Source: Microcoleus sp. EPA2 (GTDB taxonomy: Bacteria > Cyanobacteriota > Cyanobacteriia > Cyanobacteriales > Microcoleaceae). Taken from it: 64,000 nucleotides of DNA. This document shows positions 572 through 59,915 of this stretch, in pieces. The stretch lies in assembly GCA_020882975.1 (NCBI GenBank), contig JAHRFD010000015.1, positions 1 through 64,000 on the forward strand. The letters are read 5' to 3'. Below the pieces are notes generated by a model. It had not been told where the DNA came from. It was given only the letters and a program-made list of their open reading frames with translations, and did not search any database. How positions within the stretch are numbered: position 1 is the first letter of the stretch; the number at the start of each line of letters is the position of its first letter. The position numbers and the translations under genes are program-made.

Positions 572-2146
572 TTAGATAATTTTTTCAATAATACCCTTGG
601 TTTTATGTGCTAACTTCCAATGCTTCCTTTCATCTTTACCTAACTTTTGAGACGCTTCTAAAATAGCCAATCTCAGCATATCGGAGGCTGCACTCAAATC
701 ATTCTTAATTACAAGTGCCTCTGATCTGGTTCCACTTTTTGCGATAGCTAATGCTGCATAACGTTTCACAACCTCTGAGGTGGAGTTTTGATAAATTTTA
801 ATGATATCTGTTATGTGATTCCAATCTTCTGATGTGCTAAATATATATAACATCCACATTGCATAGTAATCAGGCGGGGAATTCCGTTTACGAATTAATG
901 GATTTAATAGTTTTTTTGCTATTTTTTTCTTTTTGGTTTTTGGAAGATTGGTGAAAGAAACAACATATTTAGCAATTTGCTCAGATAAGGGGTAAAACAG
1001 TTCGGCACTTTCAATAATTAAATCTAATACTTCATGCTTGAGTTGTTCTGGCACACCAGGAATATGAGGGAGTCTAGTCAAAACATAGTTGACAATTTCG
1101 TAATCTACTAAAGTTGTATCAGAGATAGACCTCTGAAGCATACTGCGAATGTCAAATCTTTGTAGCTGTTCCAAAACATTTTGAATCTCTTCCTCATCAA
1201 GCTCTTCTTCAATGTCTCCTTCATCTTGATAACTAGTATGAACCTTTTTTAACAAAGCAACAGCAGAGTCTCTATCTCTTAAATCCTCATCTGGCTTTGC
1301 AAGCACTTCTTTGATATACCTATGTTTAGGTAGTATTTTTGTCTTCGCTGACTGCAATGTTAGCCCATGATTAGAGAATAACCATTCTCCTAAACGAAAA
1401 AGGTTGGATTGAGTCTCATACTCTGATTTGCAGAATATATTGTAATCATCCACCCAACGAACAAAATCTATATTGTTTGAGTATAAATATGAGTCAACGT
1501 CGATCAATACAGCTTCCGCTAAAATCCTAGATGCATAAGGACCAACAGGAATACCGTAACTATTACGCTCCATTAAATTAGAAATTAATTTCTTTACTAA
1601 GACACGTGCTATTTCCATTCCACGCAGAGTTGTAGCAACTGTCTGAACTATATTTTCTAATCTATGCTGATAAATTCTTGGATAGAAATCGGCAATATCT
1701 GCAATTCCGATAAATTTGATGTCACGTTTATGGGATCTCTTTTGTAATTGATCCAAATAAGAATCGTGCGTTCCTTCTGTATTATAAAGTCTGTCTGCTC
1801 TTGATGTATCAACTCTATGTGAGAATACCCGCTGAGATTTTTTAGGGAGACGTTGAGCTTCTATGTCGTTTTTAACTATTAAAACTAAAGCAGTATAAAT
1901 AATTAAGTCTTCAGGGTGTAGAAGATGGACGATTCGTATGTTTGCTCTACTTTTGGGAGCAAACACTTTCATGGGTTTGTAGGGTTCATAAATGTCTAGA
2001 TCTACATCCTTGATATAATCTTTTACTTCTTGCCACTTGTTCTGTATGTCCACCCATTCGATGGGTTCAGGCAACATTGTACTATATCCGTGATGGTTTA
2101 TCGCTTCAAAAGCATATTCTAATTCTTGCTCGGACAACTTAAACAC
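572..2146 (-). CDS. Reverse transcriptase with helical-repeat C-terminal domain (defence-RT-like)
   Basis: The 524-residue product carries polymerase motif A (DIADFYPRIY, Asp150), motif B (GIPVGPYASRI near residue 200) and motif C (FVRWVDDYNIF, VDD at 232-234 in place of the usual YADD). From about residue 330 to the end it is a run of amphipathic helix pairs resembling HEAT repeats, for example SEVVKRYAALAIAKSG. Group II intron RTs would instead show the X/maturase domain and an HNH, which are absent. RTs of the Abi/UG type carry such helical C-termini and act in phage defence, so that role is an inference. The start is GTG at 2144-2146, preceded by AAGGGAT. No partner gene or ncRNA is obvious, and mobile-element debris lies on both sides. 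Confidence 0.85.
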   Translation of the reverse strand: MFKLSEQELEYAFEAINHHGYSTMLPEPIEWVDIQNKWQEVKDYIKDVDLDIYEPYKPMKVFAPKSRANIRIVHLLHPEDLIIYTALVLIVKNDIEAQRLPKKSQRVFSHRVDTSRADRLYNTEGTHDSYLDQLQKRSHKRDIKFIGIADIADFYPRIYQHRLENIVQTVATTLRGMEIARVLVKKLISNLMERNSYGIPVGPYASRILAEAVLIDVDSYLYSNNIDFVRWVDDYNIFCKSEYETQSNLFRLGEWLFSNHGLTLQSAKTKILPKHRYIKEVLAKPDEDLRDRDSAVALLKKVHTSYQDEGDIEEELDEEEIQNVLEQLQRFDIRSMLQRSISDTTLVDYEIVNYVLTRLPHIPGVPEQLKHEVLDLIIESAELFYPLSEQIAKYVVSFTNLPKTKKKKIAKKLLNPLIRKRNSPPDYYAMWMLYIFSTSEDWNHITDIIKIYQNSTSEVVKRYAALAIAKSGTRSEALVIKNDLSAASDMLRLAILEASQKLGKDERKHWKLAHKTKGIIEKII

Positions 2147-5351: not shown

Positions 5352-6458
5352 TTAATTAAATCCTTTTGTTCCTGCCGATCGATCGCGGTAGACAAAATCT
5401 TCTTTGTGCACGGACAATCTATCTAACACCGATCGAATTTCAGAGTGTTGGGGTGAAAGATGGCAAACAGGATCGGTAGCCCGTGCATCTTGGGTTAACA
5501 GAAATGCTTGACAGCGACAACCACCCCAATCCAAGGTTTTACGATCGCAACTCTGACAAGGTTCCGGCATCCAATTCGTGCCGCGAAATCGATTCATTCC
5601 CGCAGACTCAAACCAAATCCAATCAAGGGGGCGATCGCGAATATTGCCAAACTCAAGATCGGGAATTGCCATCGCCGCTTGACACGGTAAACCGTCGCCA
5701 TTGGGAGTAATAATTAACGTCCGATTCCCCCAACCGCCCATGCAAGGTTTGGGATATTCAGCGTAGTAATCGGGAATAACATAGAGAATTCCCATCGGAA
5801 TTTTGCGCGTTTGTTGAGCTGCTTTCACCACTTGTTTCGCGCGGGCTAACTGTTCGCGAGTCGGCAATAAAGCATCCCGATTGTGCAGCGCCCAACCGTA
5901 GTATTGAGTATTTGCTAATTCAACGCGATCGGCTTGCAAAATCTCGGCTAGCGATAGCATTTCCTCAAGGCGATCCAGATTCTGACGGTGTAAAACAAAG
6001 TTCAATGTTAGCGGAAATCCTAGCTCTTTTACCAGTTGAGCCGCAGCAATCTTTTGGTCGAACGATCGCGCTCCAGCAATGCGATCGGACTGGGCCGCGA
6101 GGCTATCTTGAATGCTGATTTGAACGTGATCTAAACCCAAGTTTTTTAAATTTGCAGCCCGTTCTTTGGTGAGTAAAGTTCCGGCCGTAACTAATGTCGT
6201 GTAAAGCCCTAACTCGGCCGCAGTTTCGACCAATATTTCTAAGTCTTTGCGTAGCAAAGGTTCTCCACCAGTCAGTCCCAATTGCAAAACACCCAACTTT
6301 CGAGCTTGTCGGATTACTCGCAACCAGTCCTCTGTCGGGAGTTCTTGCTGGTAAGAATTATCGCTCCAATTCATCGGATTCGAGCAGTAGGGACAGCGCA
6401 AAGGACAGCGATAGGTTAACTCTGCAACCAAACTAAAAGGTAATGGAATCTCATTCAT
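5352..6458 (-). CDS. pqqE: PQQ biosynthesis radical SAM enzyme PqqE
   Basis: PqqE forms the carbon-carbon bond between the Glu and Tyr of the PqqA peptide, the first committed step of PQQ synthesis. The 368-residue protein has the radical SAM motif CPLRCPYC (Cys18, Cys22, Cys25) and a GGEPLL SAM-binding segment. Its C-terminal SPASM region is cysteine-rich (CMGGWGNR, CQSCDRK, GGCRCQAF, VCHLS) for auxiliary Fe-S clusters. Its start overlaps the end of pqqD by 8 bp, so the pair is translationally coupled. It is the last gene of the cluster. Confidence 0.95.
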   Translation of the reverse strand: MNEIPLPFSLVAELTYRCPLRCPYCSNPMNWSDNSYQQELPTEDWLRVIRQARKLGVLQLGLTGGEPLLRKDLEILVETAAELGLYTTLVTAGTLLTKERAANLKNLGLDHVQISIQDSLAAQSDRIAGARSFDQKIAAAQLVKELGFPLTLNFVLHRQNLDRLEEMLSLAEILQADRVELANTQYYGWALHNRDALLPTREQLARAKQVVKAAQQTRKIPMGILYVIPDYYAEYPKPCMGGWGNRTLIITPNGDGLPCQAAMAIPDLEFGNIRDRPLDWIWFESAGMNRFRGTNWMPEPCQSCDRKTLDWGGCRCQAFLLTQDARATDPVCHLSPQHSEIRSVLDRLSVHKEDFVYRDRSAGTKGFN

Positions 6459-6714
6459 TTAAAAAACCTCGCTGCGAAATTCGATCGATTAGTTGGCGGA
6501 CATCTGCTTCTACATTGGGGCTAGCAAACTGCGCGGATAACTCTGCAATAATTTCCTCTGTCGTATGGTGGCGATCGCACAGTTTTAAAATTGCCCAAGC
6601 CGTTTTATTCAGTTTGACTGCGCCTTCGGGAAACAAGAGAAAATGCTGTTGCCTGATCTCATCCCAAAACAGCCGCACTCCACAAGCAAGATAGGGATAA
6701 CTGTTATCATTCAT
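6451..6714 (-). CDS. pqqD: PQQ biosynthesis peptide chaperone PqqD
   Basis: This 87-residue protein has the PqqD (RRE) fold: an N-terminal beta part (GVRLFWDEIRQQHFLLFPEG), then the helical part with LNKTAWAILKLCD and TTEEIIAELSAQF. PqqD binds the PqqA leader and presents it to PqqE. It overlaps pqqE by 8 bp. The length is normal for the family. Confidence 0.93.
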   Translation of the reverse strand: MNDNSYPYLACGVRLFWDEIRQQHFLLFPEGAVKLNKTAWAILKLCDRHHTTEEIIAELSAQFASPNVEADVRQLIDRISQRGFLNE

Positions 6715-6746
6715 TTGTTTTCAACATAGTTGACAGTTGACATTTT

Positions 6747-6774
6747 GTAGGGGCGGTGCCCCCGTGCCCGCCCT
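6747..6774. repeat. Dispersed GC-rich palindromic repeat, copy 1
   Basis: The unit begins GTAGGGGCGGTGCCCCCG and ends TGCCCGCCCT. Identical copies lie at 9026-9053, in another PQQ-cluster spacer, and at 59706-59733, inside the GH31 coding sequence. Confidence 0.8.
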
Positions 6775-6868
6775 CTTAGTTGACAGTTAGTAATTTTCCC
6801 AATCTCCCAATCTCCCAATCTCTCAATCTAAAATCTCCCTCTGTTCCCCTCATGTTTCACAAAGAGTA

Positions 6869-6994
6869 ATTATACCAAATCGTAGTTATCCATCACCTTT
6901 ATAAATCCTTCGTTTATAGTCATAGTCTATGCGATTGCTTCACTTCCTTAGCAATGACAATAAAAGGGGTCCTCAACCCGGATTTGGTATTATT
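6869..6994. repeat. MITE-like inverted-repeat element overlapping the pqqC stop
   Basis: The ends AATTATACCAAATC (6869-6882) and GATTTGGTATTATT (6981-6994) are near-perfect inverted repeats about 98 bp apart. The pqqC stop codon (6990-6992) lies inside the distal arm. No transposase is encoded. Nearby, at 6798-6830, are short CCCAATCT repeats. Confidence 0.6.
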
Positions 6995-7712
6995 TACCTT
7001 CGGGACGAGTGTCTCCTCGATCGATCGCTTCAAGCTGGCTCCACAACAGATCGCATTTAAAAATTAATGCTTGAACAGCTTTCTGTTGCATCTCAACAGT
7101 CTGACAGTTTTTCAGCACTAAATTCAGTGCGTAGCGAGCGTCTTGAGGGGCTTGATGCAATCGCACTCGGAAATAATCAAATCCACTTGGCTCGATCCAT
7201 GAATAGTATTTTTCCAACGCAACCAATCGATCGCGAATTGCATCGGGCCCGAACAATTCTGTCAGCGAAGATGCGATCGCTTCAATCCAAGGTTTAGTCT
7301 TGCAGAAATTGACATAAGCATCGACAGCATATCGCACTCCGGGCAAAACATTGCGATCGTCCAACAGTCGATCGCGCGACAGTCCCACCGCTTCACCCAA
7401 TCGCAACCATGCTTCAATTCCTCCTGCTTCCGCACCCTTACCGTCGCGATCGATATTCCGGCCGTCATGGTCGATAATGCGTTGAATCCACTCGCGCCGC
7501 ACTTCGCGATCGGAACAATTCGATAAAATTGCAGCATCTTTAAGCGGAATATTGCGTTGATAATAAAATCGATTAATTACCCAGCGCCGAACTTCTTCTT
7601 GAGTCAATTCTCCTGCATTCATGCGTTGGTGAAACGGGTGCAGGTGGTGGTAGCGGTGGTGTTGCTGGCGCAGCAAATTCTCGAATTCGATCGGTGACAA
7701 TAATTCTTGCAT
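6990..7712 (-). CDS. pqqC: Pyrroloquinoline-quinone synthase PqqC
   Basis: PqqC is the cofactor-less oxidase that closes the last ring and oxidises AHQQ to PQQ with O2. The 240-residue all-helical protein has the family landmarks HPFHQRMNAGELT, WVINRFYYQRNIPLKDAAIL and RIIDHDG. The length is typical. The start codon abuts a MITE-like element whose end supplies AGGA 8 nt upstream of the ATG. The stop codon lies in a second such element. Confidence 0.95.
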   Translation of the reverse strand: MQELLSPIEFENLLRQQHHRYHHLHPFHQRMNAGELTQEEVRRWVINRFYYQRNIPLKDAAILSNCSDREVRREWIQRIIDHDGRNIDRDGKGAEAGGIEAWLRLGEAVGLSRDRLLDDRNVLPGVRYAVDAYVNFCKTKPWIEAIASSLTELFGPDAIRDRLVALEKYYSWIEPSGFDYFRVRLHQAPQDARYALNLVLKNCQTVEMQQKAVQALIFKCDLLWSQLEAIDRGDTRPEGK

Positions 7713-7837
7713 ATAGCAATCCTAAATCATTTGCGTAATTACTGTAGGGGCAATCCCCCCGTGGTTGCCCGATAGATTAGGGGTAGGCACGGGGGCACTA
7801 CCCCTACAAATTTTGCGAATCATTTAGGATCGCTATA
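7712..7837. repeat. MITE-like element in the pqqC leader
   Basis: The ends TATAGCAATCCTAAATCATT and AATCATTTAGGATCGCTATA are inverted repeats enclosing a GC-rich palindromic core (GTAGGGGCAATCCCCC...GGGGGCACTACCCCTAC). The left end touches the pqqC ATG. A degraded further end, TATAGCGATCGCAAATGATT, lies at 7865-7884. Confidence 0.65.
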
Positions 7838-7966
7838 GTTCGTCTAAATTATTTAAGATCTCTGTATAGCGATCGCAAATGATTTGTAAATCTCTTACTC
7901 CCTCCCCTTAGTAAGGGGAGGGTTGGGGTGGGGTTAAAAATTTATGCTTCATTTAGGGTTTCTCTA

Positions 7967-8869
7967 TCACAAAGCAAACATTAATCCATCACAACCAATT
8001 TCAACTCCTTGACTCTCAACTGCTTGTCGCTCAGGAGAATTAGTAACTAGAATTGGATTGGTATTATTGATATGAACTAAAATTTTGCGCAGCCCAGTTA
8101 GTCCTTCAAGCTGCCGCAAACTGCCTTGCTCTCCCGATAAAGGTAAATGTCCCATTTGCAGTGCCGATCGCGCTCCAACACCCAAGGCTGGAAGTTCGTC
8201 ATCAGTCCAAAACGTGCCGTCGATCGCGATGCAATCGCTGGCATTTAAACGGCGCTGCATTGTCTCGTCGATCGCCGCCAATCCCGGTGCATAAGTTAGA
8301 GTTTTACCAGTGCACAGATCGCGAATTGTCAATCCTACACCCCAAACTTCATCCGGCGATCGATCTTCGTTCTGCATATATTTCGGCGGTTTTGTCGAAA
8401 GTGCAAAAGCCTCGACTTCCAGATCGGATGCCAGCGAGATAGAAGCATCTAGAGGCGACCAATCGACACCGCAATAATTTTGCAGTGTCGAAAATAATGG
8501 ATAGCCGGTTGTCAGGGCGAATTTGACTCGATCGGAACTGTAAATTTTTAAAGGATGCGATGATTCCCGCAACAGCATCAACCCAGTCGTATGGTCGATT
8601 TCAGCATCCGTTAAAATGATGCCAGCAAAAGGCAGCGAGCGCCCGTTTTGCGGAGCAAAACAGTTGTGCGTTCTCATTAGTTCAATTTGCTGGCGCACGT
8701 CCGGCGAAGCATTAATTAAAAACCAATCCCCGCCGTTCGATCGAATTGCGATCGATGATTGAGTTAGCGCTGTTGCTTTACCCGATCGACTCGCTTCACA
8801 GCCCCGACAGTGGCAGTTCCATTGGGGAAATCCCCCGCCCGCCGCTGCTCCCAAAATTCTCACGATCAT
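7967..8869 (-). CDS. pqqB: PQQ biosynthesis metallo-hydroxylase PqqB
   Basis: PqqB has a metallo-beta-lactamase fold and hydroxylates the cross-linked Glu-Tyr intermediate. The 300-residue product opens with MIVRILGAAAGGGFPQWNC and the zinc-site CHCRGC (Cys19, Cys21, Cys24). It contains the LTDAEIDHTTGLMLLRE metal-binding segment and ends in a typical ILVHINNTNPIL block. The length matches the family. About 250-270 bp of repeat-rich spacer lie on each side. Confidence 0.95.
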   Translation of the reverse strand: MIVRILGAAAGGGFPQWNCHCRGCEASRSGKATALTQSSIAIRSNGGDWFLINASPDVRQQIELMRTHNCFAPQNGRSLPFAGIILTDAEIDHTTGLMLLRESSHPLKIYSSDRVKFALTTGYPLFSTLQNYCGVDWSPLDASISLASDLEVEAFALSTKPPKYMQNEDRSPDEVWGVGLTIRDLCTGKTLTYAPGLAAIDETMQRRLNASDCIAIDGTFWTDDELPALGVGARSALQMGHLPLSGEQGSLRQLEGLTGLRKILVHINNTNPILVTNSPERQAVESQGVEIGCDGLMFAL

Positions 8870-8931
8870 CTATCAAAATCCGTTAAAAATAAGAATTCAG
8901 CAGCCAGAATTCAGAATAATTCTAACTCCTG

Positions 8932-9103
8932 ATACCAATTTAATCCGTCGTTGCATATATTTCGATCCCCCTCGCATCCCCCTGATAGTCGGGGGACTTT
9001 GAGAAGAATCTTGTCCCATCCGAATGTAGGGGCGGTGCCCCCGTGCCCGCCCTCTTAGTTAGGGGCGATCGGATTCGGGAGCAGCCTCATGAAAAATTGG
9101 TAT
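8932..9103. repeat. MITE-like element between pqqB and the sugar dehydrogenase
   Basis: ATACCAATTT at the left and AAATTGGTAT at the right are inverted ends 172 bp apart. The interior contains another inverted segment (CCCCCTGATAGTCGGGGG) and the GC-rich dispersed repeat copy at 9026-9053. No open frame is present. Confidence 0.6.
9026..9053. repeat. Dispersed GC-rich palindromic repeat, copy 2
   Basis: This is identical to the copy at 6747-6774 and lies inside the larger inverted-repeat element. The following CTCTTAGTT is also shared with copy 1. Confidence 0.8.
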
Positions 9104-9137
9104 GACTCCTGAATTCTGTTGTGTCGATCGACCTCAG

Positions 9138-10364
9138 TTAGCTAGTCGGTTCCAGCCGAATCAATTTACCGTTCGACTCATCTGTGAGAACGTACAGCAA
9201 CCCATCTGGACTTTGGCGCACATCCCGCACCCGCTGCCCGATGCTAATTTCTTCCTGGCTGCGGACATTTCCTGCTGCATCTAGCTCGATCCGGCGCACG
9301 TCTTGAGAAACTAAGCCCCCGGCAAACAGATTTCCCTTCCAAGTCGGAAAACGATCGCCAGTGTAAAACGCCAATCCAGAAGGAGCAGTTGCCGGAGTCC
9401 AAACCACTTTAGGATCTACCATACCGGGGCGCGATCGCTCCTGTGAAATCTCGCCGCCTGTATACTCCTGACTGTGGGTGACGAGCGGCCATCCATAGTT
9501 TTTGCCGGCTTCAGCTAGATTCAATTCATCGCCGCCGCGCGCCCCGTGTTCCGTTACCCAAACTCGTTTTGTTCCCGGATCGAAGGCCAGCCCTTGAATA
9601 TTGCGGTGTCCGTAACTCCAAACAGCCGGATCTGCATTGGCATTTGTTGCCAAGGGATTATCGCGAGGAATTGAACCATCATCGTTTAACCGCACTATTT
9701 TGCCCAGACGGCTGCGTAAATTCTGTGCTTGCTTCCGAATGAGTTGGCCTTCTAGCTGCACCGGTGGATTTCCGCCATCTCCGATCGCGACTAACATGGT
9801 GCCATCTGGCAGCCACTGGATGCGCGATCCAAAATGTTGCGTACCCGACTTGACTTGAGACACCTCGAAGATGACGCGCAAATCCTGCAAAGCTTTGCCG
9901 TCAAATCTGGCTCTGGCAATGCGAGTCCGATTGGCATCGGCGGTGCCGGAGGCGTAAGTCAGATACACAAATCGATTTTCGGCAAATTTAGGATGAAGGG
10001 AAACATCCATCAATCCACCTTGGCCTGATGACATTACGGACGGCACTCCCGCGATCGGAGTTGGTTCCAACACCCCATTTTTCAGCAACCGCAGTCGCCC
10101 TGCTTTTTCCGAAATCAACATACTGCCATCGGGCAGCCATGCCATGCCCCAGGGGCGTTCTAACCCTTCCGCGACCGTTGCTTGCTTGAACCCCTGAGCC
10201 GTGCTGCTTGAAGATACTGCTTGAACGGGCGATGCTTCAGCAGTAGGGGCAGCAGTAGGGGCAACAGCAGCCGTATTTGGGGGAGCGACAGAACAAGCTG
10301 CGATCGTGATTCCAGCACTTGCCAGCCCAATCCTCAGAATTGAGTGTTTTATCAACAAAAGCAT
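9138..10364 (-). CDS. PQQ-dependent soluble aldose sugar dehydrogenase, lipoprotein
   Basis: The 408-residue product belongs to the glucose/sorbosone dehydrogenase (Asd/YliI) beta-propeller family. It oxidises aldoses with PQQ as cofactor, most likely at the cell surface or in the periplasm. Recognisable blocks are LERPWGMAWLPDGSMLI, FGSRIQWLPDGTMLVAIGDG, YGHRNIQGLAFDP and WVTEHGARGGDELN. The chosen ATG gives a signal peptide with lipobox IAAC (Cys24), followed by an Ala/Pro/Thr linker. A longer reading from 10451 would overlap pqqA and is rejected. It lies 14 bp after pqqA and directly before the PQQ synthesis genes, so cofactor and consumer are co-expressed. Confidence 0.9.
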   Translation of the reverse strand: MLLLIKHSILRIGLASAGITIAACSVAPPNTAAVAPTAAPTAEASPVQAVSSSSTAQGFKQATVAEGLERPWGMAWLPDGSMLISEKAGRLRLLKNGVLEPTPIAGVPSVMSSGQGGLMDVSLHPKFAENRFVYLTYASGTADANRTRIARARFDGKALQDLRVIFEVSQVKSGTQHFGSRIQWLPDGTMLVAIGDGGNPPVQLEGQLIRKQAQNLRSRLGKIVRLNDDGSIPRDNPLATNANADPAVWSYGHRNIQGLAFDPGTKRVWVTEHGARGGDELNLAEAGKNYGWPLVTHSQEYTGGEISQERSRPGMVDPKVVWTPATAPSGLAFYTGDRFPTWKGNLFAGGLVSQDVRRIELDAAGNVRSQEEISIGQRVRDVRQSPDGLLYVLTDESNGKLIRLEPTS

Positions 10365-10378
10365 GATAGTTATGACTC

Positions 10379-10543
10379 CTATTGCTGGTTGTAGATATAG
10401 GCGGTGACTTCCAAACACAAATCGAATTCTTCGAGCTCTGGTTTTTCCCAATCTTCAGAAGTGCGGATCGGTTGGCGAGATTCAGGGCGATCGTCGCTAG
10501 CTGAATTTTGCTGTGAGGTTTGAGATTGGTTTTGCGTTGCCAT
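10379..10543 (-). CDS. pqqA: PQQ precursor peptide PqqA, N-terminally extended
   Basis: The 54-residue peptide ends with WEKPELEEFDLCLEVTAYIY plus NQQ. This aligns with the classical PqqA WKKP...LEVTLYISNR, including the Glu-x-x-x-Tyr pair that becomes PQQ. Classical PqqA is about 23-29 residues. Here roughly 30 polar residues rich in Gln, Ser and Thr precede the conserved part. The ATG at 10541-10543 follows AGGAG by 7 nt, which decides the start. It is first in the PQQ cluster and 14 bp from the dehydrogenase. Confidence 0.88.
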   Translation of the reverse strand: MATQNQSQTSQQNSASDDRPESRQPIRTSEDWEKPELEEFDLCLEVTAYIYNQQ

Positions 10544-10988: not shown

Positions 10989-11234
10989 TTGACAAAGATA
11001 CACCTCTGCAAGACACGCTGGACTTTAATTAACCATCAAGTGTTTGGCGAAGATAAGGACATTGTTGAAGAACAGTATCCCGAAGATTTACCTCGCGCGC
11101 TGCAAGATGAAGTCCACATTGCCGGGGATAAAAGCTCGATCGCCTATCGCTTGCGGATTGGCGGCATTGGGTCTAGGACGATCGTTTACCGCCTAACTCC
11201 TATCTCAATTAAATTTCGGAGATCCAAACCATGA
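10989..11234 (+). pseudogene. Rieske-type ring-hydroxylating oxygenase, C-terminal remnant
   Basis: The segment VFGEDKDIVEEQYPEDLPRA followed by EVHIAGDKSSIAYRLRI resembles the C-terminus of cyanobacterial pheophorbide-oxygenase-like Rieske enzymes, where a VxEEDxxVVExQRPEELP block is followed by the ELHI...SLxYR block. The Rieske and mononuclear iron domains are missing and no genuine start is seen. The last 25 codons look unrelated. It is a relic. Confidence 0.6.
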
Positions 11235-11419
11235 GCGCTGATTTAGAATTTCAAAAACCAATTCCACCAAAGCAATCCTACACAGGTTGGCAAGCAGCAC
11301 TGGCAGAGTTCTTTCAGTTTGATTTCTACAAAACCAATTTCAGAACAGAGACGCTCGCGGGAATCACCACCTTCATGACGATGGGATATATCTTAGTCTT
11401 GACATACTCCCCGGCGTGA
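11231..11419 (+). pseudogene. NCS2-family (AzgA-like) purine permease, N-terminal stub cut by an IS element
   Basis: The frame has an intact front: GGAG is 9 nt before the ATG, and the product includes FQFDFYKTNFRTETLAGITT and FMTMGYILV, the conserved N-terminus and first membrane segment of NCS2 guanine/hypoxanthine permeases. After about 58 residues it runs into the right end of the TnpB element. The remaining permease sequence is not found beyond the element. The insertion was therefore accompanied by a deletion, and the gene is dead. Confidence 0.75.
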
Positions 11420-11560
11420 ACGCACGGGGATTCTTGACACTTCACGGAGATGTGCCACAAGTGGTCTTACCTTCTCTCTGTGTCCGAAAGCGAGTCGTGG
11501 CAATGCCCTATCCCGACTTGATTTATATTTCTTGCTGCGTTCAAATCCCTATCTTGATGT
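11400..11560 (-). ncRNA. Possible TnpB omega-RNA (reRNA)
   Basis: By analogy with ISDra2, the guide RNA of TnpB is made from the 3' end of tnpB and the element's right end, with the guide read into the flank. The position, the terminal hairpin and the orientation fit. This is an inference from element architecture only, and the limits are approximate. Confidence 0.3.
11408..11430. repeat. Right-end subterminal hairpin of the IS200/IS605-type element
   Basis: TCCCCG (11408-11413) pairs with CGGGGA (11425-11430) over an 11-nt loop. This is the usual subterminal hairpin of IS200/IS605 ends. It lies about 37 bp beyond the tnpB stop and at the break point of the permease stub. Confidence 0.65.
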
Positions 11561-12594
11561 GTACCGCAGTTTAAACAGATTAACTCTCGAATTGAAAGGT
11601 CTAATTTGCCCCATTTAAACCCGCAATCTGAGCAAGTTTGGCTTGTAGGTTCCCAACGGCTGATTACCCTCAATTCTCTGCCCAATTTCTCAGATTTACC
11701 CTCACATAGCACCCTAAATTCATACCAGCCTTGCTGACTGATAGCCCTTGCAAGTTTGCGGTTTTTGACCATTCCCGATACATTCAAATCTTCTAAAACA
11801 ATCACTTGGTTATCGTTGACTATTTTAGTAGACAGTTTGTGCAGGAAGTCTTTGCGGGTGTCTGCTATTTGGTTGTGCAGTTTAGCAATTTGGAGGCGTG
11901 TTTTATTTCGGCGTTTTGAGCTGACGGGCTGGCGAGCTAGCTGGCGTTGCAGTCCACGAATTTTCCGGTCTAACTTTTTATAGCTAGGGCTTTTTGCTTG
12001 TTCGCCATTGCTCATCACTGCAAAGGTTTTAATACCTAAGTCGATGCCGATACTTGGATTCTTAGCTTCAACTTGAACTGGCTCAACTTCTACAACAAAG
12101 CTCAAGAAATAGCGATTTGCCAGGTCTTTGATTACCGTGACTGAACTAGGTGTCGATGGTAATTTTCTCGACCAGACTGGATTAACAATTCCAATCTTGG
12201 CTAAGTAAACTCCATTACCTTTAAAGGAAAACCCTCCCATTCTCAAACGTGCAGATTGGCTGTTTGTTTTTTTTTTGAACTTAGGATATCCGACTTTACG
12301 ACCTTTTCTCTTTCCTTTACAGGAGTTGAAAAAGTTCAAGAAAGCAATATCTAAATCGGCAACCGACTGTTGCAATGGAATACAGGACACTTCCCCTAAC
12401 CAAGCTCTTTCTTTAGTGTTTTTGGCTTGAGTGATAACTATTTTTTGAAGCTCCGCCGAACTTGGTTTTTTTTCGGATTGCTTGCAGAGTGCAAGAGCAT
12501 CGTTCCAAACTACCCGAACGCAGCCAAACAACTGAGCCAGGCTCTGTTGCTGTTGGTTGGTCGGGTAGAATCTGTAGCGAAATCTTGCTTTCAT
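11467..12594 (-). CDS. tnpB: TnpB, RNA-guided nuclease of an IS200/IS605-type element
   Basis: The 375-residue product starts MKARFRYRFYPTNQQQ, the usual TnpB N-terminus, so the ATG at 12592-12594 is preferred over an in-frame start 30 bp upstream. The RuvC residues are present: Asp in GIDLGIKTFAV, Glu in VLEDLNVSGM and Asp in DRDLNAARN. A CxxC...CxxC zinc finger lies between the last two (CSDCGFKWG...CLNCG). No TnpA gene is present, so this copy would need a transposase in trans. All nuclease residues are intact. Confidence 0.93.
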   Translation of the reverse strand: MKARFRYRFYPTNQQQQSLAQLFGCVRVVWNDALALCKQSEKKPSSAELQKIVITQAKNTKERAWLGEVSCIPLQQSVADLDIAFLNFFNSCKGKRKGRKVGYPKFKKKTNSQSARLRMGGFSFKGNGVYLAKIGIVNPVWSRKLPSTPSSVTVIKDLANRYFLSFVVEVEPVQVEAKNPSIGIDLGIKTFAVMSNGEQAKSPSYKKLDRKIRGLQRQLARQPVSSKRRNKTRLQIAKLHNQIADTRKDFLHKLSTKIVNDNQVIVLEDLNVSGMVKNRKLARAISQQGWYEFRVLCEGKSEKLGRELRVISRWEPTSQTCSDCGFKWGKLDLSIRELICLNCGTHQDRDLNAARNINQVGIGHCHDSLSDTERR

Positions 12595-12978
12595 AGCTTG
12601 TGCTAAAATTGGCCTGTTACTCAATTATATACAACGGATTTGATATTACCCGGCTCAGGCGATATCCAACTGCTAGGTTTGAATCACTTATATCAAGTTC
12701 GATCTCCCTGATATCTTGCAGCAATGTCAATCAGGGAATTTTTTGTGCGGTCGGACGGGTTTATCCTCCCAACTTTCGATCGCTTTAATTTCTACCTTAA
12801 TAAGTTAACTACCAGCCGGGAAGTCCGTCGGTATATTTAGAGGGGATTAAGAGGTTTTTGAATGCCCAGCATAGGGCTTAAATATAATGCTTGTGGAGAC
12901 AATTTTGAGATAAATGCAAGGTCTTTAGCCCTGGAAACGATATTTTTGTATTTCTAAATCACAGGGCTTCATCACCAA
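12595..12978. other. Left flank of the TnpB element and intergenic region before chaN
   Basis: No gene is visible. The element's left end must lie here but its exact edge cannot be fixed. A terminator-like hairpin at 12705-12744 is described separately. Confidence 0.3.
12705..12744 (+). terminator. Terminator-like hairpin
   Basis: TCCCTGAT (12705-12712) pairs with ATCAGGGA (12730-12737) and is followed by a TTTTTT run. It may have ended the disrupted permease transcript. Confidence 0.4.
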
Positions 12979-57470: not shown

Positions 57471-59915
57471 CTAAAATGTCAAACGCCGCACCGTACCATC
57501 ATCCGTAAATCGCTGTTCCCCAATCCCCACAACTTCGACAGTAACTTCGCGCTCCGAAATCGCAAACTCTCCCTCCCGCGCCGCAATTTCAACGATACTT
57601 TTGTCCCCCTCAAAATACACCTGATAATTAGTCGTAGCCCAGACACCTTGTTCGTGTTCAAAACTGTGTCCGTCGTCTTCATAAAGCGTCCATTCACCAG
57701 TTCCGGGCCAAATTCGCATTTTCAAAGAATCAAGCGGTTGTTCGCTGACAAATTGCTGCACGGGCGCGATCCTCTCCGAGGGCTTCGCTAACGCAATTAT
57801 CCCCCCACCGCGGGCGTACAGTGGCATTCTCTCCAAAGGCGCATGGGCTAAAATGTGCGTCGGGCCGTGATAGCATTCGCCCGTCCACCAATCGTACCAA
57901 GTACCCTGGGGCAAATACACGGCGCGATGCTCGACTCCGGGGCGGTAAATCGGTGCCGCCATCAGCGACGGGCCGAGCAATACTTGATCGTAAAGGTGAT
58001 AAGTTGTGCGATCGCGCGGAAAATGATACAATAGCGGTCGCAAAATCGGCGCTCCCGTCGTTGCAGCTTCCCAAAACAGGGTGTAAATGTAAGGCAACAA
58101 CTGATAGCGCAAATTGATGTATTCGCGACAGATTTGCTCGGTGCGATCGCCAAAAACCCAGGGTTCGTGCTGGGCCGTACTCAGCGCCGAATGACCGCGC
58201 ATCAAGGGATACAGCATCCCCACCTGCATCCACCGCGCGAACAATTCAGCGGTTGCATTCCCCGCAAAGCCGCCGATGTCGCAGCCAACAAACCCAACGC
58301 CGGAAAGCCCCATGTTGCAAAGCATCGGTAGCGACATTTCCAAATGTTCCCACACCGATTGATTGTCCCCCATCCACACCGACGAGTAGCGCTGTACGCC
58401 CGCAAAACCCGATCGCGTCAGCACAAAAGATCGATCGCGCGATCGCAGTTTTTGCAACCCCTCAGCACAAGCTTTCGCCATCATCAACCCGTACAAATTG
58501 TGGGTTTCCGCGTGAGTAGAAAGCGCTTCTGGCGGGCCCTGTGGCGCATCCAGCGGAAACCAGATGTGTTCGCCGCCATCCCCAAAAGGTCTTTCTGCGA
58601 TCGCCGGTTCGTTCATATCGTTCCAAATCCCCGCAACCCCCATATCAGTCAGGCTTTGGTGCAATTCTCCCCACCACTGGCGCACGTCGGGACGCATGAA
58701 ATCGGGAAATACCGCTTTATCGGGCCAAACGTAACCGTGGAAAAGCTTTCCGTCTGCGGTACGGACGAAGTAGTCGTTTTCCACACCGCGATCGAATATT
58801 TCGTAATCTGCTTCCGGTTCGTACTTGACACCAGGATCGACAATCGTCACCACCTTGAAACCGGCTGCTTTCAAATCTGCGATCAGTTTCGCGGGATCGG
58901 GGAAACGCTTCGGGCTCCAGGTAAACACGCGGTAGCCGCGCATATAGTCGATGTCGAGGTGGATGACATCGCAGGGAATGCTGCGATCGCGAAATTCCTT
59001 AGCCAACTCCCGCACCACGTCCTCTGATTCGTAGCTCCAGCGGCACTGGTGGTATCCCAGCGCCCATTTTGGCGCGAGTGGCATCCGACCGGTTAACTGG
59101 GTGTAGGTGGCGAGAATTTGGGCTGGTTCCGGGCCGTAAATGATGTAATAGTCGAGTTCCGTGTCTCTGGTTTCCATCCGCAAAATGCCCGGTTGTTCGG
59201 CGCCGATGTCGAATTGACTCCAAAATGTGGTGTTGAAAAAGATGCCGTAAGCGCGATCGGGATTCAGGGCGATGTAAAATGCGATCGCCTGATACATTTC
59301 ATCGGTGAGGGAATTGTAGTCGAGGGAGTCCGTTGTCCAGTTAGTTTTGACTTCCGAGAGTTTGTCTAGGAAGCCCGTGCGTTCCCCGAAACCGTAGAAG
59401 TGTTCGTCGGGTTCGATTTGTTTCCAGGCGGCGGTTGCGCCTGTGCGCCATCCCATCGGGTTCGCGCAGTCGCTAGCAAAGGGTTTTCCTAATTTGTCGA
59501 AGCATTCGATGGAAGTGCGATTTCGATTGACAGAAACTAATATTTGTGCTGTTTCTATTTCGATTTTTTCCGCTGTTTCTCGCACTTCAAAAGGCACGAT
59601 TTCCCATTGTTCGTCGGGGAGAGTTACTGAGTGCAATTTGCTTTGACCCCCCCCCTGCCCCCCCTTGCTAAGGGGGGGTGATAATTTTATTTCTTGCCCC
59701 CCGTTGTAGGGGCGGTGCCCCCGTGCCCGCCCTGGTTGGGGGGGGTTTGGCCACATTCGCACTCGAATTAAATTCGGCGCGAGGATGCTGATTTTGAGAG
59801 CGGAATTGGTACAGTTGAAGTGAATTGCGCGATCGGTTTTGTCGATCGATTGCACTGAGCCAATAATTGACCAAGGCTGTTCGGTAGTTTGGAGTTTTCC
59901 GAAGTATTGTGGCAT
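57471..59915 (-). CDS. GH31 alpha-glucosidase with repeat-derived insertions
   Basis: The 814-residue enzyme hydrolyses alpha-glucosidic bonds. The nucleophile Asp lies in GIWNDMNEPA (about residue 432) and the acid/base Asp in SSVWMGDNQSVWEHL (about 516). DVIHLDIDYMRGYRVFTW and GCDIGGFAG are family blocks. Residues about 58-91 (PPQPGRARGHRPYNGGQE and LSPPLSKGGQGGGQ) are translated dispersed repeats. A second one near the C-terminus encodes ALAKPSERIAP. It has no signal peptide, so it acts in the cytoplasm. Confidence 0.93.
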   Translation of the reverse strand: MPQYFGKLQTTEQPWSIIGSVQSIDKTDRAIHFNCTNSALKISILAPNLIRVRMWPNPPQPGRARGHRPYNGGQEIKLSPPLSKGGQGGGQSKLHSVTLPDEQWEIVPFEVRETAEKIEIETAQILVSVNRNRTSIECFDKLGKPFASDCANPMGWRTGATAAWKQIEPDEHFYGFGERTGFLDKLSEVKTNWTTDSLDYNSLTDEMYQAIAFYIALNPDRAYGIFFNTTFWSQFDIGAEQPGILRMETRDTELDYYIIYGPEPAQILATYTQLTGRMPLAPKWALGYHQCRWSYESEDVVRELAKEFRDRSIPCDVIHLDIDYMRGYRVFTWSPKRFPDPAKLIADLKAAGFKVVTIVDPGVKYEPEADYEIFDRGVENDYFVRTADGKLFHGYVWPDKAVFPDFMRPDVRQWWGELHQSLTDMGVAGIWNDMNEPAIAERPFGDGGEHIWFPLDAPQGPPEALSTHAETHNLYGLMMAKACAEGLQKLRSRDRSFVLTRSGFAGVQRYSSVWMGDNQSVWEHLEMSLPMLCNMGLSGVGFVGCDIGGFAGNATAELFARWMQVGMLYPLMRGHSALSTAQHEPWVFGDRTEQICREYINLRYQLLPYIYTLFWEAATTGAPILRPLLYHFPRDRTTYHLYDQVLLGPSLMAAPIYRPGVEHRAVYLPQGTWYDWWTGECYHGPTHILAHAPLERMPLYARGGGIIALAKPSERIAPVQQFVSEQPLDSLKMRIWPGTGEWTLYEDDGHSFEHEQGVWATTNYQVYFEGDKSIVEIAAREGEFAISEREVTVEVVGIGEQRFTDDGTVRRLTF
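57764..57794. repeat. Dispersed repeat (reverse complement of GCGTTAGCGAAGCC) inside GH31
   Basis: GCGCGATCCTCTCCGAGGGC then TTCGCTAACGC matches the reverse complement of 42286-42316 apart from a few bases. It encodes ALAKPSERIAP. Confidence 0.8.
59645..59755. repeat. Nested palindromic repeats inside the GH31 N-terminal region
   Basis: A CCCCCCTTGCTAAGGGGGGG element is followed by TTGCCCCCC. The 28-bp GC-rich repeat (59706-59733, identical to 6747-6774 and 9026-9053) and then GGTTGGGGGGGG come next. The frame of the host gene stays open across all of it. Confidence 0.85.

What the first reader, a model, noticed from the sequence alone, without database searches (positions are those of the whole stretch)
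5352..10543. Complete PQQ biosynthesis cluster with its own PQQ dehydrogenase in a cyanobacterium
pqqA, a PQQ sugar dehydrogenase lipoprotein, pqqB, pqqC, pqqD and pqqE lie in one minus-strand block. PQQ synthesis is best known from proteobacteria, and a full set in a cyanobacterium is uncommon. Placing the consumer enzyme between pqqA and pqqB suggests a dedicated periplasmic sugar-oxidation unit. Acquisition by transfer is possible, but the HIP1 sites inside the genes argue for long residence.
Basis: partly seen in the sequence, partly recalled or inferred. Interest (0 to 1): 0.75.

Follow-up and report, generated by a model that had tools for sequence, protein, structure and literature searches.

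The report
PQQ cofactor operon in a cyanobacterium
This cyanobacterium carries an intact set of genes for making the redox cofactor PQQ with a matching sugar-oxidising enzyme between the first two genes, a rare and patchily inherited trait in its order whose enzymes nonetheless look like the ordinary ones.

Summary
In detail: pqqA, a PQQ-type aldose dehydrogenase lipoprotein, pqqB, pqqC, pqqD and pqqE lie on the minus strand at 10543-5352. All five Pqq proteins pass their NCBI cut-offs. No disabling change was found: the one substitution at a published active-site residue (PqqC His154 to Ile) also occurs in the solved Methylorubrum extorquens PqqC, from a PQQ producer.
The cluster is rare, not unique: pqqB passes cut-off in 16 of 388 genomes of the order and 3 of 61 of the family. 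Cyanobacterial PqqB+C+E form one clade against seven outgroup rows, nearest Actinomycetota, not Proteobacteria.
The dehydrogenase lies between A and B in 10 of 22 loci, before A in 5, not seen nearby in 5, unresolved in 2. These orders match the Pqq tree but not the RpoB tree, so the cluster moved between cyanobacterial families. Within this genus divergence equals that of rpoB, so residence is long.
Reservations: no PqqF-type protease passes cut-off; "dedicated" holds in this genus (3 of 3 against 0 of 26) but 14 genomes of sister genera keep the dehydrogenase without pqqB; one relative (G660) has lost pqqE and half of pqqB but kept it. PQQ production is unproven.

The parts
10379..10543 (-). 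pqqA, 54-aa precursor peptide; Glu45 and Tyr49 are the E-x-x-x-Y pair that becomes PQQ; about 25-30 residues longer at the N-terminus than the usual 23-29 aa peptide
   Evidence: TIGR02107 24.1 bits over cut-off 20, PF08042; AGGAG upstream of ATG; long N-terminus kept in close relatives
9138..10364 (-). PQQ-dependent aldose (sugar) dehydrogenase, predicted lipoprotein, YliI/ASD type
   Evidence: PF07995 440 bits; closest solved structures 7cdy and 2g8s; counterparts of sGDH His144, Arg228-Asn229 and Arg406/Arg408 kept at H177, R254-N255, R378/R380 (the sGDH residue names and roles are recalled); start ATG and lipobox read from sequence
7967..8869 (-). pqqB, metallo-beta-lactamase-fold iron hydroxylase of the pathway
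   Evidence: TIGR02108 360 bits; C19, C21, C24, D88, D92, H93, H241, H266 invariant in 83 of 83 aligned PqqB
6990..7712 (-). pqqC, PQQ synthase (cofactor-independent oxidase)
   Evidence: TIGR02111 305.5 bits; AlphaFold model pLDDT 91.4, Foldseek first hit 1otw, PqqC with PQQ bound; active-site residues kept except His154 to Ile
6451..6714 (-). pqqD, peptide chaperone
   Evidence: TIGR03859 81.6 bits; only PqqD-family hit in the genome
5352..6458 (-). pqqE, radical SAM/SPASM enzyme that cross-links Glu and Tyr of PqqA; overlaps pqqD by 8 nt
   Evidence: TIGR02109 508 bits, single copy in the genome at E <= 1e-50; C18, C22, C25, C239, C259, C301, C304, C314, C316, C332 invariant in 66 of 66
9025..9060 (.). 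short dispersed repeat in the GSDH-pqqB spacer
   Evidence: identical to 6746-6781, third copy near 59705
7743..7810 (.). degenerate direct and inverted copies of the same repeat in the pqqB-pqqC spacer
6746..6781 (.). the same repeat in the pqqC-pqqD spacer

Best explanation
This is a working PQQ operon of a cyanobacterial branch of the known pathway, coupled to its main user. PqqE, with PqqD as chaperone, joins Glu45 and Tyr49 of the 54-residue PqqA. A general M16-type protease encoded elsewhere cuts the product out, PqqB hydroxylates it, and PqqC closes and oxidises the rings to PQQ. The cofactor is exported and loads the lipoprotein sugar dehydrogenase, whose gene follows pqqA, so the cell can oxidise aldoses outside the cytoplasmic membrane and pass electrons to an unknown acceptor. 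The cluster entered cyanobacteria once or a few times from a non-proteobacterial branch, spread between families, and is absent from most genomes of this genus, most simply by loss. Shown: gene content, intact residues, trees, gene orders, co-occurrence. Inferred: activity, protease, export, substrate, electron acceptor.
For: All five Pqq proteins pass curated cut-offs. Catalytic and cluster-binding residues are kept. The two lineage-specific active-site residues have counterparts in M. extorquens enzymes. In the genus, a close dehydrogenase copy (85% identity or more) occurs in exactly the 3 of 29 genomes with pqqB. In the Pqq tree the order A-GSDH-B against the two other orders needs one change. 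Divergence within the genus equals rpoB. Candidate proteases are two adjacent M16 genes on contig C1.
Against: No PqqF-type protein passes its cut-off (best 89 of 320 bits). Three spacers of 254-275 nt with repeats leave co-transcription unproven, and consensus promoter and terminator scans gave no more sites than shuffles. PqqC lacks the His154 that published work (recalled) holds essential in the Klebsiella enzyme. 14 genomes of sister genera keep the dehydrogenase without pqqB, and G660 keeps it after losing pqqE, so it need not depend on self-made PQQ. A single origin in cyanobacteria is not shown: in the PqqC tree named Gemmatimonadota-type rows stand at an unresolved fork among cyanobacterial groups.
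Confidence: 0.85

Rival explanations
1. The cluster is a relic or a partial pathway: genes persist but PQQ is not made, because PqqC is impaired at the oxygen-activation residue and no dedicated protease exists.
For: PqqC His154 to Ile; no PqqF over cut-off; repeats have entered three spacers; 26 of 29 genomes of the genus lack pqqB; in a relative, G660, the cluster is decaying.
Against: All reading frames are intact here and in G401. Ile stands at that place in M. extorquens PqqC and in 17 of 17 cyanobacterial PqqC that reach it. Per PMC2294125 (passages) Acinetobacter needs only four genes, so pqqF is not always required.
Confidence: 0.1
2. The radical-SAM cluster makes a peptide product other than PQQ from the long PqqA, and the dehydrogenase is a bystander.
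For: PqqA is about twice the usual length with a conserved N-terminal half in close relatives; the dehydrogenase also lives without pqqB.
Against: The E-x-x-x-Y pair, PqqB and PqqC are all kept and pass family cut-offs set for PQQ; a PQQ-type dehydrogenase sits beside them in 15 of 22 cyanobacterial loci.
Confidence: 0.04
3. Recent capture of a foreign operon by this one species.
For: Patchy distribution: G409, closest by RpoB of the four genomes of this genus compared, lacks pqqB.
Against: Two congeners have it, with flanks unlike the window's, one of them measured at rpoB-like divergence; background HIP1 density; LEGE 13415 and this family stand together in both the Pqq and the RpoB tree.
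Confidence: 0.05

Closest known systems
pqq gene clusters of Methylorubrum extorquens AM1 and Klebsiella pneumoniae
   Same: Same enzymes A to E (order in those species recalled); PqqC Ile154 and a carboxylate at PqqB position 90 as in M. extorquens
   Different: A dehydrogenase gene lies between A and B; PqqA is 54 aa instead of 23 or 29 (lengths from PMC2294125); no pqqF or pqqG in the cluster; pqqC and pqqD not fused as they are in M. extorquens (PMC10906245)
pqq clusters of other cyanobacteria (for example Calothrix NIES-4105, Mastigocoleus testarum, LEGE 13415)
   Same: One clade in the PqqB+C+E tree against seven outgroup rows; PqqC Ile154 in 17 of 17 that reach it
   Different: Gene orders over 22 loci: A-GSDH-B 10, GSDH-A-B 5, no GSDH seen nearby 5, unresolved 2
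Aldose sugar dehydrogenase YliI/ASD of Escherichia coli (2g8s) and the 7cdy glucose dehydrogenase
   Same: Homology over nearly the whole mature length, 251 and 257 bits
   Different: Lipoprotein anchor and linkage to pqq genes; E. coli makes no PQQ (recalled; the name YliI for 2g8s is recalled too)

Membership tests
PQQ biosynthesis cluster | PqqA with E-x-x-x-Y | tested here: met
   E45/Y49, TIGR02107 over cut-off
PQQ biosynthesis cluster | PqqB, C, D, E equivalogs over curated cut-offs | tested here: met
PQQ biosynthesis cluster | PqqE radical-SAM and SPASM cysteines | tested here: met
   10 cysteines invariant in 66 of 66 sequences
PQQ biosynthesis cluster | PqqC active-site residues (Klebsiella Y23, H24, R80, H84, Y128, E147, H154, R157, Y175, R179, K214; list partly recalled) | tested here: inconclusive
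   All kept but H154, which is Ile; Ile also in 5vrc of M. extorquens
PQQ biosynthesis cluster | PqqF/PqqG protease | tested here: not met
   Best 89.2 bits against cut-off 320; generic M16 genes present. Not needed in every PQQ producer (PMC2294125)
PQQ biosynthesis cluster | PQQ made by the cell | not testable with these tools
   needs assay
PQQ-dependent aldose/glucose dehydrogenase (PF07995) | family score and PQQ-binding residues | tested here: met
   440 bits; His, Arg-Asn and Arg/Arg positions aligned to sGDH; PQQ binding itself untested
TIGR03606 sGDH subfamily (non_repeat_PQQ) | score over 434.55 | tested here: not met
   141 bits; nearer 7cdy and 2g8s

The most novel reading that the evidence does not exclude
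PQQ is a shared good in cyanobacterial mats: a few producers feed the many relatives that kept a PQQ sugar dehydrogenase but do not make the cofactor (in this family 14 genomes without pqqB against 3 with it). G660 would be caught in the change from maker to user: its dehydrogenase frame is intact while pqqB is cut short and pqqE is gone from the genome. The conserved long PqqA leader is then a cyanobacterial addition that targets or times precursor processing.
Probability: 0.25. Interest if true: 0.6.

Novelty: new member of a known kind. Interest (0 to 1): 0.4.

Why it matters
Oxygenic phototrophs are not usually counted among PQQ makers (general knowledge). An intact, long-held cluster linked to a sugar dehydrogenase points to sugar oxidation outside the cell membrane in some cyanobacteria, and to possible cofactor exchange with relatives that keep only the enzyme. 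It also shows that the Ile154 form of PqqC, as in the solved M. extorquens enzyme, is the common form in the non-proteobacterial rows sampled here, which bears on how PqqC activates oxygen.

Tried and rejected
PqqC His154 to Ile and PqqB Gln90 to Glu were first taken as signs of an altered or dead pathway, because the remaining loci were His in 68 of 68 and Gln in 73 of 73. Rejected after checking solved enzymes of M. extorquens: Ile in PqqC 5vrc and Asp at PqqB position 90 in 4z7r. Six alphaproteobacterial plasmid loci had Asp at 90 and His (4) or Ile (2) at 154.

A single mobile A-GSDH-B unit: the arrangement needs one change on the Pqq tree, but the GSDH tree rejects one clade of linked GSDHs when ten database rows, nine of them of unknown linkage, are included (39 rows, p-AU 8e-7). 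With those ten, two outgroup rows and one long orphan row (G393) left out (26 rows, another model) one clade is the best tree but with support 26/70. Unresolved. The f5+f11 test (p 0.009) is weaker than the Nostocales-type test (p 9e-59).

Empty site: DNA of congeners around the tRNA-Gly and dnaJ flanks was compared with the window; flanks are rearranged and no empty site was found. Plasmid linkage: 214 plasmid records hold PqqC, all under 60% identity; no cyanobacterial name is among the ten commonest genera or the 15 rows shown. Literature: the listings (29 papers; 16; 15 of 26 shown; 7) have no title or abstract start about cyanobacterial pqq genes; PMC10515406, a review of cyanobacterial heterotrophy, has no 'pyrroloquinoline' in its main text (find). 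Subscription papers are mostly not held.

The probability of the novel case was raised from 0.20 to 0.25 for that fact.
Full report
The observation. Reading the minus strand from 10543 down to 5352 gives pqqA (54 aa), a dehydrogenase (408 aa from ATG 10364), pqqB (300), pqqC (240), pqqD (87) and pqqE (368), all open. Each Pqq protein passes the curated NCBI cut-off for its step. The dehydrogenase is a PF07995 protein nearest the solved 7cdy and 2g8s enzymes and begins with a lipoprotein signal. pqqA and the dehydrogenase are 14 nt apart and pqqD overlaps pqqE by 8 nt; the other spacers are 254-275 nt and hold copies of one dispersed repeat. In LEGE 13415 (L016) the dehydrogenase and pqqB are contiguous, so the long spacers may be secondary.

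Are the parts intact? PqqE keeps ten cysteines in 66 of 66 sequences; PqqB keeps C19, C21, C24, D88, D92, H93 and H266 in 83 of 83 (roles recalled). PqqC keeps Y23, H24, R80, H84, Y128, E147, R157, Y175, R179 and K214 (Klebsiella numbers) but has Ile for His154. PMC2294125 (passage) says H154 and R157 move into the active site on substrate binding, the title of 3hml calls H154S an active-site mutant, and I recall published work placing H154 in an oxygen-binding core needed for turnover. In one search, 17 of 17 cyanobacterial PqqC that reach this position have Ile (5 of 22 do not reach it), as do two Actinomycetota; a Streptomyces plasmid has Met, a Paenibacillus Val; six alphaproteobacterial plasmid loci have His (4) or Ile (2); the remaining loci have His in 68 of 68 (5 of 73 without PqqC). 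The concern falls away because M. extorquens PqqC, solved as 5vrc, has Ile there too, and that species makes PQQ (PMC2294125 and PMC10906245, passages). PqqB position 90 is Glu in the 21 cyanobacterial loci that show it, Gln in 73 of 73 remaining loci and Asp in 6 of 6 alphaproteobacterial ones, with Asp in the solved M. extorquens PqqB. PMC10906245 calls PqqB an iron-dependent hydroxylase (passage); that this was shown for M. extorquens is recalled. An AlphaFold model of PqqC (pLDDT 91.4) has PQQ-bound 1otw as its first structural match.

The missing step. PMC10906245 (passage) places a PqqF/G protease between PqqE and PqqB. The best PqqF match in this genome is 89 of 320 bits. The genome has several M16 peptidases, including two adjacent genes on contig C1; these are candidates only. 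PMC2294125 notes that Acinetobacter needs four genes.

Distribution. PqqC over cut-off: 1 of 386 genomes in a phylum sample, the window's own; 12 others gave 24-65 bits and are taken as another TENA-type family. PqqB over cut-off: 3 of 61 in the family, all in one genus of 29 genomes; 16 of 388 in the order, in 8 genera of 149. Five more genomes of the 388 gave lower scores: G645 and G584 end near a contig end, G660 is truncated inside its contig, G621 (32 bits) and G395 (22 bits) are not PqqB. The protein database adds PqqC entries named Microcoleus, Nostoc, Aliterella, Calothrix and cyanobacterial MAGs, so such genes are already annotated. Of the 22 cyanobacterial loci (19 from these genomes plus L016, L017, L019), 14 show all of A to E, 5 are cut by contig ends, and 3 are incomplete without that excuse: G536 lacks pqqE nearby, G526 lacks A, D and E nearby, G660 has A, the dehydrogenase and a cut pqqB. 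A genome search finds pqqE elsewhere in G536 and G526, and none in G660.

Relationships. In a PqqE tree of 39 of 66 available rows the five cyanobacterial rows are one clade (98) beside two Actinomycetota (94), then a Paenibacillus and an Acidobacteria row, with the rest apart. In the PqqB+C+E tree the 22 cyanobacterial loci form one clade (100/99; seven outgroup rows, five rows less than half filled, LG+G4) with three subclades that match gene order: A-B (f3, f6 g18), dehydrogenase-A-B (f11), and A-dehydrogenase-B (f5, Mastigocoleus, Calothrix/g231, LEGE 13415, this genus). For two of the five A-B loci only 805 nt (G638) and 1,977 nt (G555, with a 21% relative on the other strand) lie upstream of pqqA. 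A larger PqqC tree (134 rows, quick) is less clean: Longimicrobiales and Gemmatimonas rows and two cyanobacterial MAG rows sit at an unresolved fork beside the group that holds the window, so one origin in cyanobacteria is not shown. RpoB groups f5 with f11 (100/100), and g18 with Mastigocoleus and Calothrix (100/99). Forcing the latter together on the Pqq data is rejected (p 9e-59), and f5 with f11 less strongly (p 0.009). So the cluster has moved between cyanobacterial families. LEGE 13415 and this family stand together in both trees, and pqqA-pqqB DNA is 81.5% identical between the window and congener G411 against 82.7% for rpoB, so recent history here looks like descent with losses. HIP1 octamers stand at background density in the genes (0.91 against 1.02 per kb); the hexamer CGATCG is denser in them (7.5 against 2.9 per kb).

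The user enzyme. In the genus the close dehydrogenase (85% identity or more) is in 3 of 29 genomes, exactly those with pqqB; chance for that split is 2.7e-4 if genomes were independent, which they are not. One other congener (G416) has a 39% relative. In sister genera 14 genomes have a dehydrogenase of 59-75% identity without pqqB (plus G421 with a contig-end fragment); in two of the 14, G394 and G429, the gene is split across frames. Only pqqB was tested there. G660 shows the step in progress: an intact dehydrogenase frame (415 aa) beside a pqqB that ends after about 190 matching residues, with no pqqC, D or E in the following 7 kb and no pqqE in the genome, while its sister G644 has the full set. 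So the enzyme is coupled to the cluster here but can outlive it.

PqqA. The peptides of close relatives keep a long N-terminus (MATQN...) before the W-E-K-P...D-L-C-x-E-V-T-A-Y core, and more distant cyanobacterial frames are also open well upstream; the Solirubrobacterales peptide, and probably the Acidobacteria and Paenibacillus ones, fit the usual short form. The Shine-Dalgarno supports the long start. Its function is unknown.

Verdict. A real, intact, uncommon PQQ operon of a known kind in a cyanobacterium, long resident in its genus, with an unusual but subclade-wide placement of its dehydrogenase. That it makes PQQ is likely and unproven.

Noticed in passing
window 572-2146 (-): A 524-aa reverse transcriptase with its best PADLOC match to the defence family Drt8 (427 bits over nearly its whole length); far below cut-off for NCBI's Drt4.
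   Followed up: partly
window 11231-12624: A TnpB (IS200/IS605 type) gene lies beside a 62-codon frame that looks (by recall, not tested) like the start of a membrane permease cut short.
   Followed up: no
L201 97-225 and window 11399-11527: 129 nt identical between the window and congener G395, at the edge of the TnpB gene, suggesting a mobile-element end.
   Followed up: no
L018 (= L173): The contig titled 'Candidatus Gracilibacteria' SU_1_2 is cyanobacterial: HIP1-rich, cyanobacterial Pqq proteins, and a contig of the same length and gene positions lies in genome G637 of the window's order.
   Followed up: yes
L177 (G660), reverse strand 7182-7844: pqqB cut short after about 190 matching residues and followed by unrelated sequence; no pqqE in the genome; dehydrogenase frame intact.
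   Followed up: yes
G394:C1:5066054-5067079 and G429:C44:2371-3742: Dehydrogenase genes split across reading frames in genomes without pqqB, perhaps decay or assembly error.
   Followed up: no
window 6990-7712 (-): The window's PqqC has a short insertion just after the active-site HDG motif, shared in that form only with P0001 among the aligned rows; congener G401 has a shorter variant of it.
   Followed up: partly
PqqC alignment: The rows with Ile, Met or Val at 154 also have mostly Cys132, Cys215, Tyr123 and Tyr189 (each 113 or more of 127 rows, many near-identical) where the His154 rows have other residues; their role is unknown.
   Followed up: partly
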